Below are positions 25,722 to 31,660 of a DNA stretch of 64,000 nt, piece after piece (the stretch's first letter is position 1; each line of letters opens with the position of its first letter). This DNA is from an uncultured Clostridia bacterium (GTDB lineage Bacteria; Bacillota; Clostridia; Lachnospirales; CAG-274): assembly GCA_947628755.1 (NCBI GenBank), contig CANRBC010000016.1, forward strand, positions 1-64,000, given 5' to 3'. A program made the translations under genes and the position numbers. The notes beneath the pieces were generated by a model. That model did no database searches and was not told where the DNA came from. It saw only the letters and a list, made by a program, of their open reading frames with translations.

Positions 25722-26387
25722 TCACGAGAGCCTTACTATTACAACAGACGCAGATACGGAGGGCGTTTCCGCATCTCCCTGTGTAAGAGAAAACTGAGTG
25801 TCTCCCACATTTCTGATTGTAATAACAGAATCGGGAGCTGTTATGTTTATAACAAATGTACCCGTGACAGTCGGAGCTTTTGCACCTTTCTCAACAGCCG
25901 TATAGGATACAGGCGTTTCGTCAACTGCGACTGCAAGCTCCGCCTCGTCGTCTGAGGCTATGCTGAACTGTACCAGATAATATCCAGGCTCGGCAATGGT
26001 AAATCCACCGTTTCCGTCAGAGGTTATACCGTCGCCTGAGACAGCTCCCTCTGTGGTAAAGGGTACTGCCGTATCCGTTTCTACATTGACCTTCTCTCCC
26101 TTTGTCACAGAGTTATAATAATCAACGGCGGCACAAGAGCCCGGCGGACCTTGCGGACCTACGGGACCTTGCGGACCTGCCGGACCTTGTGCGCCCTGTG
26201 GACCTTGCGCACCCTGAGCGCCCTGAGCCCCCTGTGGACCCTGCGGACCTTGTGCGCCCTGGGCTCCCGTAAGACCTCTCGGACCCTGCGGACCTGCCGG
26301 ACCTTGTGGACCCACAGGTCCTTGACCGCAGCAGCAGTTTCTTCCGAATGTATTATTAGCCGAATTGCTGCATCTGCACCCTGCCAT
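25722..26387 (-). CDS. Collagen-like protein with C-terminal jelly-roll-type domain (BclA-like)
   Basis: A 221-residue protein: a short Cys-rich N-terminus ([12 protein letters not shown]...NCCCG), about 20 uninterrupted Gly-X-Y triplets (roughly residues 26-86, mostly GPQ, GAQ and GPA), then a domain of about 130 residues with a [10 protein letters not shown] strand typical of C1q/TNF-like trimer heads. Family members form fibres on the exosporium or spore surface. GGAAG eight bases before the ATG sets the start. There is no signal peptide, which fits a spore-surface protein made in the mother cell. A candidate sigma-K -10 lies upstream. The Gly-X-Y tract is prone to length change. Confidence 0.9.
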
Positions 26388-26437
26388 AATGACCACTTCC
26401 TTCAAAAATTAATAGAGAAGCTGTACACCTCCCTTAT

Positions 26438-27405: not shown

Positions 27406-27434
27406 TTGCCTCAAACTCCGTTTACTCATATAAT
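27406..27434 (+). promoter_or_regulatory. Promoter of the regulator/endonuclease operon
   Basis: TTGCCT (27406-27411), a 17-base spacer and a perfect TATAAT (27429-27434), 22 bases before the XRE start codon. Confidence 0.75.
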
Positions 27435-27456
27435 ATTAATATGGAGGTGTATCTCT

Positions 27457-27672
27457 ATGATTACTGAAGACTTAGGTAAACGAATACGTGAGCTGCGCCA
27501 GAAAACCGGGCTGAGCCAAGAAAAGTTCGCGCTGAAAATAGGTATGGACAGAACCTACTTTGCATCCGTAGAGGCTGGTAGGTGGAACATTGCTATCTGC
27601 AATATAAAGAAAATTTCTGATGGGCTGGGTGTGACGCTCAGTGAGTTATTTGATTTTGATGAATTACAATGA
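27457..27672 (+). CDS. XRE-family HTH regulator, putative R-M controller protein
   Basis: A 71-residue Cro/C1-type helix-turn-helix protein starting MITEDLGKRIRELRQ, with the recognition region TGLSQEKFALKIGMDRTYFASVEAG near residues 18-42. Size and position, directly before a restriction gene, match controller (C) proteins of type II systems. These bind their own promoter and time endonuclease expression. TGGAGG precedes the ATG at 27457. Its stop overlaps the next start (ATGA at 27669). Base composition and greater use of ATT for Ile differ from the host genes nearby. Confidence 0.88.
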   Translation: MITEDLGKRIRELRQKTGLSQEKFALKIGMDRTYFASVEAGRWNIAICNIKKISDGLGVTLSELFDFDELQ

Positions 27673-28137: not shown

Positions 28138-28962
28138 ATGGCATTTATAGACAAACAACTGCTTGAGTTCAAGCGATTAATTGAGAATTCAATTATTACG
28201 GGAGGCGCAAAAGGTAAGGAATCAATGATTCGTTCATCGGGACTTATTAACTTGATTCATGACGCGGTCAAATATGAATTCATACAAGCTGGGGTGAATC
28301 GTAACAACATTTATCCTCACTTCGGTGATACAAAACCAGAATTAAAAATGGCTGGATTTCTAAAGCAGAAGGATCAAGACATATGTATTGTACCCTCTAA
28401 TATTAGGAAATCACCTACAACCATAAACTGGGGACCACTGGCATTTGAGGGAAAAAATGATCCTTACGGCTTTGACTATTCCACCAACACATTAGTAATC
28501 AATGTTAGAAGCCAAATGAGCAGCCTCGCTAAAAATTCTGATACTTTGTTTGAAAGAACTTTTGCTGAAGCACAAAACCTTCATATTCGTTACCCGGATA
28601 TCGTACTCGGTGAGGTTTATTTAATCCCGGTTCATGAATATGACGATGATTTGGTAAAAAGAAATCGAGTTGGATTCCGCGACAGGCAGACAAACATTGA
28701 AAAATACATAAGTTTCTTTGATTCGATAAATAACAGACCAACCGGCGGTGGTGATTATGCGTATGAAAGGTGTGCTCTGTTAATTGTTGATTTCAATCGC
28801 CCGCAGCCGTATCTTTTCAGAAATAGTGATGAGCTCAAAAAAGCGGGCTATATTTCACAATCATTTGGTATTGAATACGCATCCTTGAATTTTCACGACT
28901 TTGTAGATGATATACTTAATGTCTATGCCGAAAGATATAATATTCAGAATCTAATGGCATGA
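28138..28962 (+). CDS. Putative type II restriction endonuclease
   Basis: A 274-residue protein with TAAGGAGG before the ATG at 28138. Its neighbours (controller gene upstream, convergent adenine methyltransferase downstream) make it the expected restriction enzyme. Visible blocks are SMIRSSGLINLIHDAVKYEF near residues 29-48, MAGFLKQKDQDICIVPS near 71-87 and NTLVINVRSQMSSLAKNSD near 118-136. ERTFAEAQNLHIRYPDIVLG lies near 141-160. The D...VRSQ spacing could be a variant PD-(D/E)XK site like the ExQ version of BglII, but the classical lysine is not obvious. The recognition sequence is unknown. It appears intact. Confidence 0.7.
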   Translation: MAFIDKQLLEFKRLIENSIITGGAKGKESMIRSSGLINLIHDAVKYEFIQAGVNRNNIYPHFGDTKPELKMAGFLKQKDQDICIVPSNIRKSPTTINWGPLAFEGKNDPYGFDYSTNTLVINVRSQMSSLAKNSDTLFERTFAEAQNLHIRYPDIVLGEVYLIPVHEYDDDLVKRNRVGFRDRQTNIEKYISFFDSINNRPTGGGDYAYERCALLIVDFNRPQPYLFRNSDELKKAGYISQSFGIEYASLNFHDFVDDILNVYAERYNIQNLMA

Positions 28963-29015: not shown

Positions 29016-29194
29016 TTACAATATTTCGACTACTTTTTTAATGTTGCATTCAAGATATTTACATATTTTTTCAATGATTTCCAGCGAAACAGATTCATTC
29101 TTTCCCATGTGCTAATGCCCGCACCAGAAACAAGATCTGCACGCTTCATCTTTCTGTCAATGAGCAATTTCCATAACCTGTTGTAACTTATCAC
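29016..29194 (-). pseudogene. XRE-family regulator broken by a small deletion
   Basis: On the minus strand a GTG start at 29194 (GAGTGAGGA upstream) opens ISYNRLWKLLIDRKMKRADL...GIST, then the frame is lost. The +2 frame resumes at once with MGKNESVSLEIIEKICKYL and ends CNIKKVVEIL at 29016. Together they read like a normal 65-70-residue Cro/C1 regulator lacking about 16 bases in the turn after helix 3. The first frame instead ends in unrelated residues at a TAG. It lies 13 bases downstream of the methyltransferase on the same strand. Confidence 0.75.
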
Positions 29195-29207
29195 AATAAT
29201 GATTTCC

Positions 29208-31028
29208 TCACTCAAGGTTATAATAATTCCACAGAAATGCATCAAGTTTCTCATCCGAGGCATTTAATATGATTTCGATATCGTGCTCTGAAAACCATGG
29301 AAGCGAGAAGCGTTCAACATATTTTTTCTGATAGCAAAAATAACCACCTTCAATTGAATAGCTTGTATTGCTAACGTAATAACCCATAAGCCGAGAGTTT
29401 AGTATCCGCTGCAATACATCCAAGCTATATCTATCATTCTCAAATACCGCATACCCATTGCAAAAAAGTGCATCTTCATTATCGACATAAATAAATTTGG
29501 GTTTGTTTGCAAACGTAGGGAAAAGGAGTTTTTTGCCATATTTGTTTAAGCCTTGCGTCCTTCCATATGCATACCACCCTTGAGGATTGCCTTTCCCTTT
29601 ATCTCTTGAATCAAGTTCCTCTCTTTGCAGAGATAGGCAGAAGTATGTAAGCGGGAATTCTGATTTAAAAACGCTTTCGTCTATAAGCGTGTAACCGGCT
29701 TTACTCTTTACATATGGAAAAATAATAAATCTTTTAGCGTCATCAATATTGTCGTGCTGCTTCAAATCCGGAATTTTATAAATGGGTTTTACGAGACCGG
29801 GTTCAATATACACTTTTTGAGTTCCTATTTGTTTGAAATAGCCTTTACTGTCACAATCAACTAAGTATACGCCATCTCGTAAGGTTGCGATCCCCGTTCT
29901 GATAAATTCTTTAATGGAAATCATTTGAGATTCGATTTTTCGCAAATTTCTAAATGTGACTTGATCGACCAGCCTCCATCCATTTTTATCAAGGCTATCA
30001 TACGGCATCTTATCATATGATAAGGTGACTATTCTCTTTTTGATATCCTCGGTTTTTTCCATTGTACAATATTCGAATTCTTCGTCGTTCTGTTTGGACA
30101 GAATGATGATACAGTTATAAGTACGCATCGGTTTGAAAACCATATTGTCTCCGAAGTCAAGAATACGTTTTGGTAAGCGGTACGCTTGCAAGTATTCACG
30201 CAATTCGAGTGCGGACTTTATGGTCAAAAAATTATTCGGAATGATATAGCCAAGAAGTCCATGTACATCAAGAAAGCTCATTGCATACTCAATAAATGCA
30301 TAGAATATGTTGAAAACTCCGTTACGGGTCGTAGAAAATGTTTCTTTTAGATATTTTACTGTCTTCTTATTCATATCATGCGGATTAACATACGGAGGAT
30401 TGCCTATTATGTAATCGAATGATTGTAGTCCGAATTCTTTTGCCCAGTTACATTTTAAACTATCACGACATAGCACGTTAGGCCTTACTGCTTGGTAATC
30501 ACAACCGTGTTTCGCACATAAAAGACGTAGAACAAGAACACACCGACGAGCGTTATCTTTGTCGATGTCTATTCCATAGATATTATTATTAACAACCGTA
30601 TCTATTCTTATGTTGAATCTTGACGAAATCATTTCTGCCGCTGTGATAAGAAATATTCCACAGCCACAGCCGGGATCAATTATAGATAAATTCTCACTAT
30701 ACTCTGACAAATTTTCAAAAAGGTTAGCCGCAATATATTCTGCAATATACTGTGGTGTGAATACAATCCCATTTTCATACTTATTGTCTTCTTCCAATAG
30801 AGATTCAAACAACTCTATAATTGTTTCTAAATCTGTCTCTATACTTGTATTTTTAAGAATTTCTTCAATTTCAGCTGCTTCCTTGGAATCATAATAATTA
30901 TCATTACATTGATAGTCATTCAAGCAATATCGCATAATCCCATCTTCAATCTCAGAAAACGAGTACCCAGATAGTCTTTTTTTTATTTCTGCATATGTTG
31001 AAAGACGGTCACTTTTTGTGTTTCCCAT
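29208..31028 (-). CDS. Type II N6-adenine DNA methyltransferase (Eco57I/TaqI-like)
   Basis: A 606-residue SAM-dependent methyltransferase protecting host DNA from the adjacent endonuclease. Motifs in order: GIVFTPQYIAEYIA near 87-100 (motif X), IDPGCGCGIFLITA near 117-130 (motif I), IYGIDIDKDNA near 150-160 (motif II), and catalytic YIIGNPPYVNP near 206-216 (motif IV NPPY, gamma-type adenine enzyme). A large C-terminal target-recognition domain follows, with a TaqI-C-like GYYVSNTSYSIEGGYFCYQK near 552-571. GGAGGACAAC precedes the ATG, which overlaps the stop of the upstream regulator (TGATG). The enzyme looks complete. Confidence 0.92.
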   Translation of the reverse strand: MGNTKSDRLSTYAEIKKRLSGYSFSEIEDGIMRYCLNDYQCNDNYYDSKEAAEIEEILKNTSIETDLETIIELFESLLEEDNKYENGIVFTPQYIAEYIAANLFENLSEYSENLSIIDPGCGCGIFLITAAEMISSRFNIRIDTVVNNNIYGIDIDKDNARRCVLVLRLLCAKHGCDYQAVRPNVLCRDSLKCNWAKEFGLQSFDYIIGNPPYVNPHDMNKKTVKYLKETFSTTRNGVFNIFYAFIEYAMSFLDVHGLLGYIIPNNFLTIKSALELREYLQAYRLPKRILDFGDNMVFKPMRTYNCIIILSKQNDEEFEYCTMEKTEDIKKRIVTLSYDKMPYDSLDKNGWRLVDQVTFRNLRKIESQMISIKEFIRTGIATLRDGVYLVDCDSKGYFKQIGTQKVYIEPGLVKPIYKIPDLKQHDNIDDAKRFIIFPYVKSKAGYTLIDESVFKSEFPLTYFCLSLQREELDSRDKGKGNPQGWYAYGRTQGLNKYGKKLLFPTFANKPKFIYVDNEDALFCNGYAVFENDRYSLDVLQRILNSRLMGYYVSNTSYSIEGGYFCYQKKYVERFSLPWFSEHDIEIILNASDEKLDAFLWNYYNLE

Positions 31029-31246
31029 CAGTGGTTGTCCTCCGTTATCACGATTTCGGCTATGTCAGATATGCCACATTGTAGAGCACAGCATATATTC
31101 ACTAATACTTCCGTATTTACATTCTGATTGGCTGAAAGCTTTGAAATCGCTGAACTACTTAGTCCCGTAATTGATGCTAAATCTTTCTTCTTCAGTTTTT
31201 TATCAACAAGCAGTTTCCATAGCTTTGTATATTCAATATATATCAG
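31028..31246 (-). CDS. Small XRE regulator with apparent CTG start
   Basis: A frame of 72 codons reads IYIEYTKLWKLLVDKKLKKK, then DLASITGLSSSAISKLSA, and ends at TGA 31030-31028, sharing its A with the methyltransferase ATG. It is a clear Cro/C1 HTH, similar in layout to the broken regulator at 29016-29194. No ATG, GTG or TTG occurs between the upstream in-frame TGA and the HTH. CTG at 31246 stands five bases after TGGAGG and five codons before KLW, exactly where homologues start. I infer CTG initiation, or a start codon mutated from ATG. Coupling to the methyltransferase suggests a regulator of it. Confidence 0.7.
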   Translation of the reverse strand: MIYIEYTKLWKLLVDKKLKKKDLASITGLSSSAISKLSANQNVNTEVLVNICCALQCGISDIAEIVITEDNH

Positions 31247-31272
31247 ATATACCTCCAGAAGATTTCAATAGA

Positions 31273-31301
31273 AGTATAGCACAAAATGCAGCAAAAAGCA
31301 A
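31273..31301 (-). promoter_or_regulatory. Promoter of the regulator-methyltransferase operon
   Basis: On the minus strand TTGCTT (31301-31296), a 17-base spacer and TATACT (31278-31273), upstream of the CTG-start regulator. A 7-bp dyad (CGCTCTC...GAGAGCG) spans about 31304-31353 and could be an operator. Confidence 0.6.
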
Positions 31302-31660
31302 TGCGCTCTCGCAAATAAATCCTTATTTTGAGAATATTGTTATGAGAGCGGCAAAAAACACACTAATGATTTTATCCTTCGATATAGTCTTTAGTTTGTG
31401 CCTCCGCTTGAAGAGTGCCGATTAAAAATTCTCGTGTTTTTAGAAAATCACTACCTAGCATTAGGGTGTTATTCCCGGCGCGGCTATTCCTTTGTTATTT
31501 TAATTCGATTTGCCTGTCATTGTCACATTGTAATTGACTGTCATAGTGAAGTCCTCCTCTAATTTAGTAGTGACATCCGCTCTAAACCACAAAAATAGCA
31601 AGCCGATTACCCCAAAATATGGACAAATATACACGCCGATTATTGTTCAATTTGGGTATA
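31302..31660 (-). other. Remnant of an integrative element: short gene fragments
   Basis: Two minus-strand fragments with element-like features are visible. At 31500-31544 a strong AGAGGAGG site precedes a 14-codon frame, MTVNYNVTMTGKSN, that looks like the first residues of a small gene common on clostridial conjugative elements. At 31372-31461 there is a 29-codon frame, MLGSDFLKTREFLIG..., ending KDYIEG. Both look like leftovers of genes lost by deletion. The stretch 31247-31663 otherwise has no intact gene. Confidence 0.4.

What the first reader, a model, noticed from the sequence alone, without database searches (positions are those of the whole stretch)
31028..31246. XRE regulator gene that seems to start with CTG, hidden in front of the methyltransferase
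Seen: a 72-codon HTH frame with no ATG, GTG or TTG after the preceding in-frame stop. CTG at 31246 sits five bases after TGGAGG and at the position where this regulator type normally begins. Its TGA shares a base with the methyltransferase ATG. Inference: either rare CTG initiation keeps regulator dose low, or ATG was lost and the gene is a silent relic whose translation no longer couples to the methyltransferase.
Basis: partly seen in the sequence, partly recalled or inferred. Interest (0 to 1): 0.6.

Follow-up and report, generated by a model that had tools for sequence, protein, structure and literature searches.

The report
Regulator gene with a lost ATG
A small DNA-binding regulator next to a restriction-modification methyltransferase has lost its start codon by one base change (ATG became ATA, one codon after the CTG that was noticed); it is probably a gene switched off or nearly so, an ordinary kind of gene decay.

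Summary
The frame is real: 71-72 codons, HTH_26 (PF13443, E 1.4e-15), with a Shine-Dalgarno site, a promoter-like site and a TGA that overlaps the methyltransferase ATG. No ATG, GTG or TTG could start a whole protein. The CTG, however, is not the ancestral start. The two close orthologous loci, L046 and L047, have ATG one codon further on, where the window reads ATA (31243-31241). Of 91 distinct homologous loci, 76 have a canonical codon exactly there, and the window is the only one with no canonical start nearby. The island is operon regA-M-regB facing C-R. In the window the second HTH_26 gene, regB, is also broken, by a 16-base deletion; in L046 regA is frameshifted and has lost its stop. 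Nine more distant M loci carry no intact HTH_26 partner. Best reading: an accessory regulator recently silenced or strongly lowered by ATG to ATA, in a locus that sheds these regulators while M, R and C remain open. Low-level translation from ATA or CTG is not excluded, nor is a one-base assembly error. Low interest.

The parts
31028..31243 (-). regA: HTH_26 regulator frame from the ancestral start position (now ATA) to TGA
31241..31243 (-). ATA at the position where L046 and L047 have ATG and the family usually starts
31244..31246 (-).
31252..31257 (-). Shine-Dalgarno site TGGAGG, 5 nt before CTG and 8 nt before ATA
   Evidence: same in L046
31273..31301 (-). promoter-like TTGCTT-17-TATACT with TG before the -10; TATACT also in L046 and L047. 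Found by eye; the consensus scan did not list it
   Evidence: not listed
29208..31028 (-). M: adenine methyltransferase, PADLOC MTase_II, Pfam Eco57I
29019..29200 (-). regB: second HTH_26 gene, broken by a 16-base deletion; ATG GCG of L046 reads ATT GTG here
28138..28962 (+). R: PADLOC REase_II, open, starts ATG at 28138
27457..27672 (+). C: PADLOC Control_protein, ATG start, open

Best explanation
The frame is regA, a small HTH_26 repressor-like gene at the head of the methyltransferase operon of a type II R-M island (regA-M-regB facing C-R). In this genome one G-to-A transition turned its ATG into ATA. Nothing canonical can replace it, so the protein is not made or made only in traces. The second regulator of the operon, regB, is broken too. 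The methyltransferase keeps its promoter-like site and its own ribosome-binding site, and C stays open next to R, so the R-M system goes on without regA and regB. Shown: the sequence differences, the homologous start, the broken regB, the open M, R and C frames. Inferred: the direction of the change, that translation is lost, that regA bound DNA of this operon, that its loss is tolerated.
For: ATG at the aligned codon in both close orthologues. 76 of 91 distinct homologous loci have a canonical codon at that exact position, and 90 of 91 have one within 12 codons upstream of the conserved Tyr, the window alone excepted. regB carries a 16-base deletion in the same genome. In L046 regA has a one-base deletion and a lost stop. 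None of 9 more distant loci with M holds an intact HTH_26 neighbour within the DNA held, while R is found in 8 of 9. dN/dS window-L046 is 0.30 for regA (12 N, 10 S) against 0.088 for M; on the window branch regA has 7 N: 6 S and M 31 N: 68 S.
Against: The frame is otherwise open over its whole length, and leader, Shine-Dalgarno site and TATACT are kept. The excess of amino-acid changes is not significant: Fisher p = 0.13 on the window branch, 0.056 for window and L046 together. Neutrality is neither excluded nor shown: 6 N of 12 changes outside the start codon, p = 0.12 against a neutral share of 0.70; no stop codon in 12 neutral changes would be seen 65% of the time anyway. Over the whole window-L046 distance regA dN/dS is still below 1. 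Only two close orthologues were found, both in metagenome assemblies, and the L046 lesions could be assembly errors.
Confidence: 0.63

Rival explanations
1. regA is still translated at a low rate from ATA (8 nt after GGAGG) or CTG (5 nt), and the weak start sets a low regulator dose, as GTC does for Streptomyces sigR.
For: Intact Shine-Dalgarno site, promoter-like site and open frame. infC of this genome has ATT 8 nt after GGAGG (the nearest in-frame canonical codons are a GTG inside the Shine-Dalgarno site and an ATG four codons later), so the host probably starts at AUU in that gene (the use of AUU by infC is recalled). Non-canonical starts that matter exist: sigR GTC (PMC5472188, passages read).
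Against: Not conserved: L046 and L047 have ATG, and no other of 91 loci lacks a canonical codon nearby; sigR's GTC is kept in 32 of 34 species. CUG is a codon on which initiator tRNA does not initiate efficiently (PMC11497404, passages). regB is broken in the same genome. In the window, non-canonical codons at Shine-Dalgarno spacing in frames of 60 or more codons are not rare (28 listed, CTG 4 and ATA 2 of them, this gene's own CTG and ATA counted).
Confidence: 0.25
2. A one-base error in the assembly; the strain has ATG.
For: One base decides it, and no reads or second strain were available (searches found no same-species copy).
Against: regB in the same genome is broken by a 16-base deletion, which is not a typical single-base error. 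The window also differs from L046 at many other sites in the gene, so the base is not an isolated difference.
Confidence: 0.09
3. The frame is a chance open frame, not a gene.
For: No canonical start.
Against: Pfam HTH_26 E 1.4e-15; ortholog at the same place in L047 with 71 codons, 73% identical to the window.
Confidence: 0.01

Closest known systems
regA of L047 (Oscillospiraceae MAG, CANPWM010000042.1)
   Same: Same place before M, same TGA/ATG overlap, 73% identical protein
   Different: Has ATG (and a GTG just before it); regB, R and C all open
HTH_26 (PF13443) small Cro/C1-type regulators; best NCBIfam model VanU, below its cut-off
   Same: Whole-length domain match, 57.7 bits; VanU model 58.5 bits against a cut-off of 150
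   Different: No canonical start codon; not a VanU by the curated cut-off
C (controller) proteins of type II R-M systems
   Same: Small HTH protein in an R-M island
   Different: The C protein of this island is the separate gene at 27457-27672; regA is HTH_26 and lies before M, not before R
Streptomyces sigR with its GTC start (PMC5472188)
   Same: Regulator gene with a non-canonical start after a good Shine-Dalgarno site
   Different: There the codon is conserved across species and shown by experiment; here it is found in one genome only

Membership tests
HTH_26 regulator (PF13443) | Pfam match over the curated cut-off | tested here: met
   57.7 bits against 22, profile 1-61 of 63
HTH_26 regulator (PF13443) | Canonical start codon near the place where the homologues start (usual, not part of the Pfam definition) | tested here: not met
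   ATA in the window; canonical at that exact codon in 76 of 91 loci, within 12 codons in 90 of 91
Pseudogene by start loss | Orthologues have a canonical start where this gene has none | tested here: met
   ATG in L046 and L047, ATA in the window
Pseudogene by start loss | No protein made | not testable with these tools
   needs ribosome profiling or proteomics
Pseudogene by start loss | Loss of purifying selection | tested here: inconclusive
   7N:6S against 31N:68S in M, p = 0.13; window and L046 branches together p = 0.056
Gene with a functional non-canonical start (sigR-like) | Non-canonical codon conserved in orthologues | tested here: not met
   0 of 2 close orthologues
C protein of R-M systems | Match to a PADLOC Control_protein model | tested here: not met
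   regA matches none at E 0.1; the gene at 27406-27672 does, 1.9e-24

The most novel reading that the evidence does not exclude
The ATG-to-ATA change is an adaptive down-tuning: regA is made at a low rate from AUA or CUG, its level answers to initiation factor IF3, and the R-M operon is thereby set to a new M level while regB has been dropped.
Probability: 0.12. Interest if true: 0.5.

Novelty: new member of a known kind. Interest (0 to 1): 0.17.

Why it matters
As found it is a clear small example of regulators in an R-M operon being lost piece by piece, and a reminder that a gene list built on canonical starts misses such frames. If the weak start proved to be used, it would be a rare natural case of dose control by start codon in a defence system.

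Tried and rejected
CTG as ancestral start: rejected. The aligned codon is TTG in L046 and GTG in L047 with ATG directly after it; an NTG before the ATG is found in only 7 of 65 homologous loci that have ATG at that place, so it is not a conserved feature.

Upstream start in the same frame: the in-frame TGA at 31267-31265 lies about where transcription should begin after TATACT (the transcription start is inferred).

RNA structure over the regA start and over the M start: no more stable than shuffles (z 0.46 and 0.34). A block conserved upstream of the promoter-like site (GAGAnCGCATTG) as an operator: the pattern with up to 3 mismatches is no more frequent in the window than in shuffles, and no copy lies before C. 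The inverted repeats were not followed further, and the upstream region of C was only aligned with L047.

Same-species copies elsewhere: none in viral contigs or phages; only two weak partial plasmid matches. Further M loci were sought in 48 family genomes (2 with a match, the window's own counted), 392 order genomes (3, own counted), 400 genomes of the family of L047's genome (2, that genome counted) and 397 of the family of L046's genome (3, that genome counted). A 30-residue weak match to regA (E 0.002) before M in L017 may be a relic; left open.

Counts dropped: one search counted second BLAST pieces of L016 and L046 as loci; the clean count is that (91 distinct loci; L002, L004, L016 and the duplicate L091 left out). 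A first version ignored the strand of the loci and was discarded. A canonical codon nearby does not prove that it is used.

Papers: PMC11497404, PMC6397469 and PMC5472188 seen as passages only; others only as search listings. Those listings showed me no paper on a non-canonical start in an R-M regulator, which is not proof that none exists.

Full report
What is there. On the minus strand, after an in-frame TGA at 31267-31265, a frame runs to TGA 31030-31028, and this TGA shares its last base with the ATG (31028-31026) of a 606-residue adenine methyltransferase. The frame encodes a complete HTH_26 domain (PF13443, E 1.4e-15). TGGAGG lies at 31257-31252, CTG at 31246-31244, ATA at 31243-31241, ATT at 31237-31235. 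The only canonical codons inside are GTGs at codons 49 and 66 from the CTG, too late for an HTH protein. A promoter-like TTGCTT-17-TATACT with TG before the -10 ends at 31273; it was found by eye and is not in the list of the consensus scan.

The island. The window holds C (27457-27672, PADLOC Control_protein 1.9e-24), R (28138-28962, REase_II 9.2e-115), then facing them M (MTase_II 4.9e-185) between two HTH_26 genes, regA (this one) and regB. The same island is complete in L047, with all five frames open.

Where the gene starts. The genome-contig scan gave six relatives of M; the closest are L046 (89%) and L047 (83%). Alignment of the leaders reads CTG-ATA-TAT in the window, TTG-ATG-TAT in L046, GTG-ATG-TAT in L047. 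So the homologous ATG is one codon downstream of the CTG. In 91 distinct homologous loci (the window, L046, L047 and the places listed, some of them fetched), the codon at that position is ATG in 65, TTG in 6, GTG in 5; 90 of 91 have a canonical codon within 12 codons upstream of the conserved Tyr; the window does not.

Decay of the two regulators. regB of the window lacks 16 bases that L046 and L047 have, which breaks its frame, and its ATG GCG reads ATT GTG. regA of L046 lacks one base and its TGA reads GGA, while its regB is open and no R is found on the contig held. In nine more distant loci with M (L048, L049, L050, L051, L017, L103, L110, L112, L113), R is found in eight and C in one, within the DNA held, and an HTH_26 neighbour in none, apart from a 30-residue weak match in L017. 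The regulators thus look like a late and dispensable addition to an M-R pair (inference).

Selection. Window against L046: regA dN/dS 0.30, M 0.088. Window against L047: regA 0.144, M 0.049, R 0.068, C 0.067. Changes on the window branch: regA 7 N and 6 S, M 31 N and 68 S, p = 0.13; window and L046 branches together 12:9 against 69:130, p = 0.056. Outside the start codon 6 of 12 window-branch changes alter the protein, against a neutral expectation of 70%, p = 0.12. The data are too few to separate relaxed from purifying selection.

How it most likely works. A G-to-A transition removed the start of an accessory regulator. Translation from AUA or CUG, if any, would be weak: CUG is described as a codon on which initiator tRNA does not initiate efficiently (PMC11497404, passages). 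The host's infC appears to start at ATT 8 nt after GGAGG (inference with recalled knowledge), the same spacing as the ATA here, so trace initiation is possible. M has its own GGAGG ten bases before its ATG in the window, and GGAGG is kept in L046 and L047, so loss of regA translation need not silence M.

Comparison with a true case. Streptomyces sigR starts at GTC; this was shown by mutation and is conserved in 32 of 34 species (PMC5472188, passages). Here the non-canonical codon is found in one genome only. By that yardstick the present case looks like start loss, not like a fixed device.

Verdict. Interest is low.

Noticed in passing
window 29019-29200 (-): Second HTH_26 gene (regB) after M, broken by a 16-base deletion, intact in L046 and L047.
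   Followed up: yes
L046 3787-3998: regA of this MAG has a one-base deletion and its stop codon reads GGA, so its frame runs on past the M start; R and C are not on the contig held.
   Followed up: partly
L104 (own genome, infC): infC appears to start at ATT, 8 nt after GGAGG, with an in-frame TAG just upstream.
   Followed up: partly
window 31304-31350: Inverted repeat with perfect 7-base outer arms CGCTCTC/GAGAGCG just upstream of the regA-M promoter-like site; possible operator, not tested.
   Followed up: no
L017 1406-1495: Thirty-residue weak match to the regA C-terminus directly before M (E 0.002), possibly a relic of a lost regulator.
   Followed up: no
window 25722-26405 (-): Collagen-like G-x-y repeat protein.
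   Followed up: no
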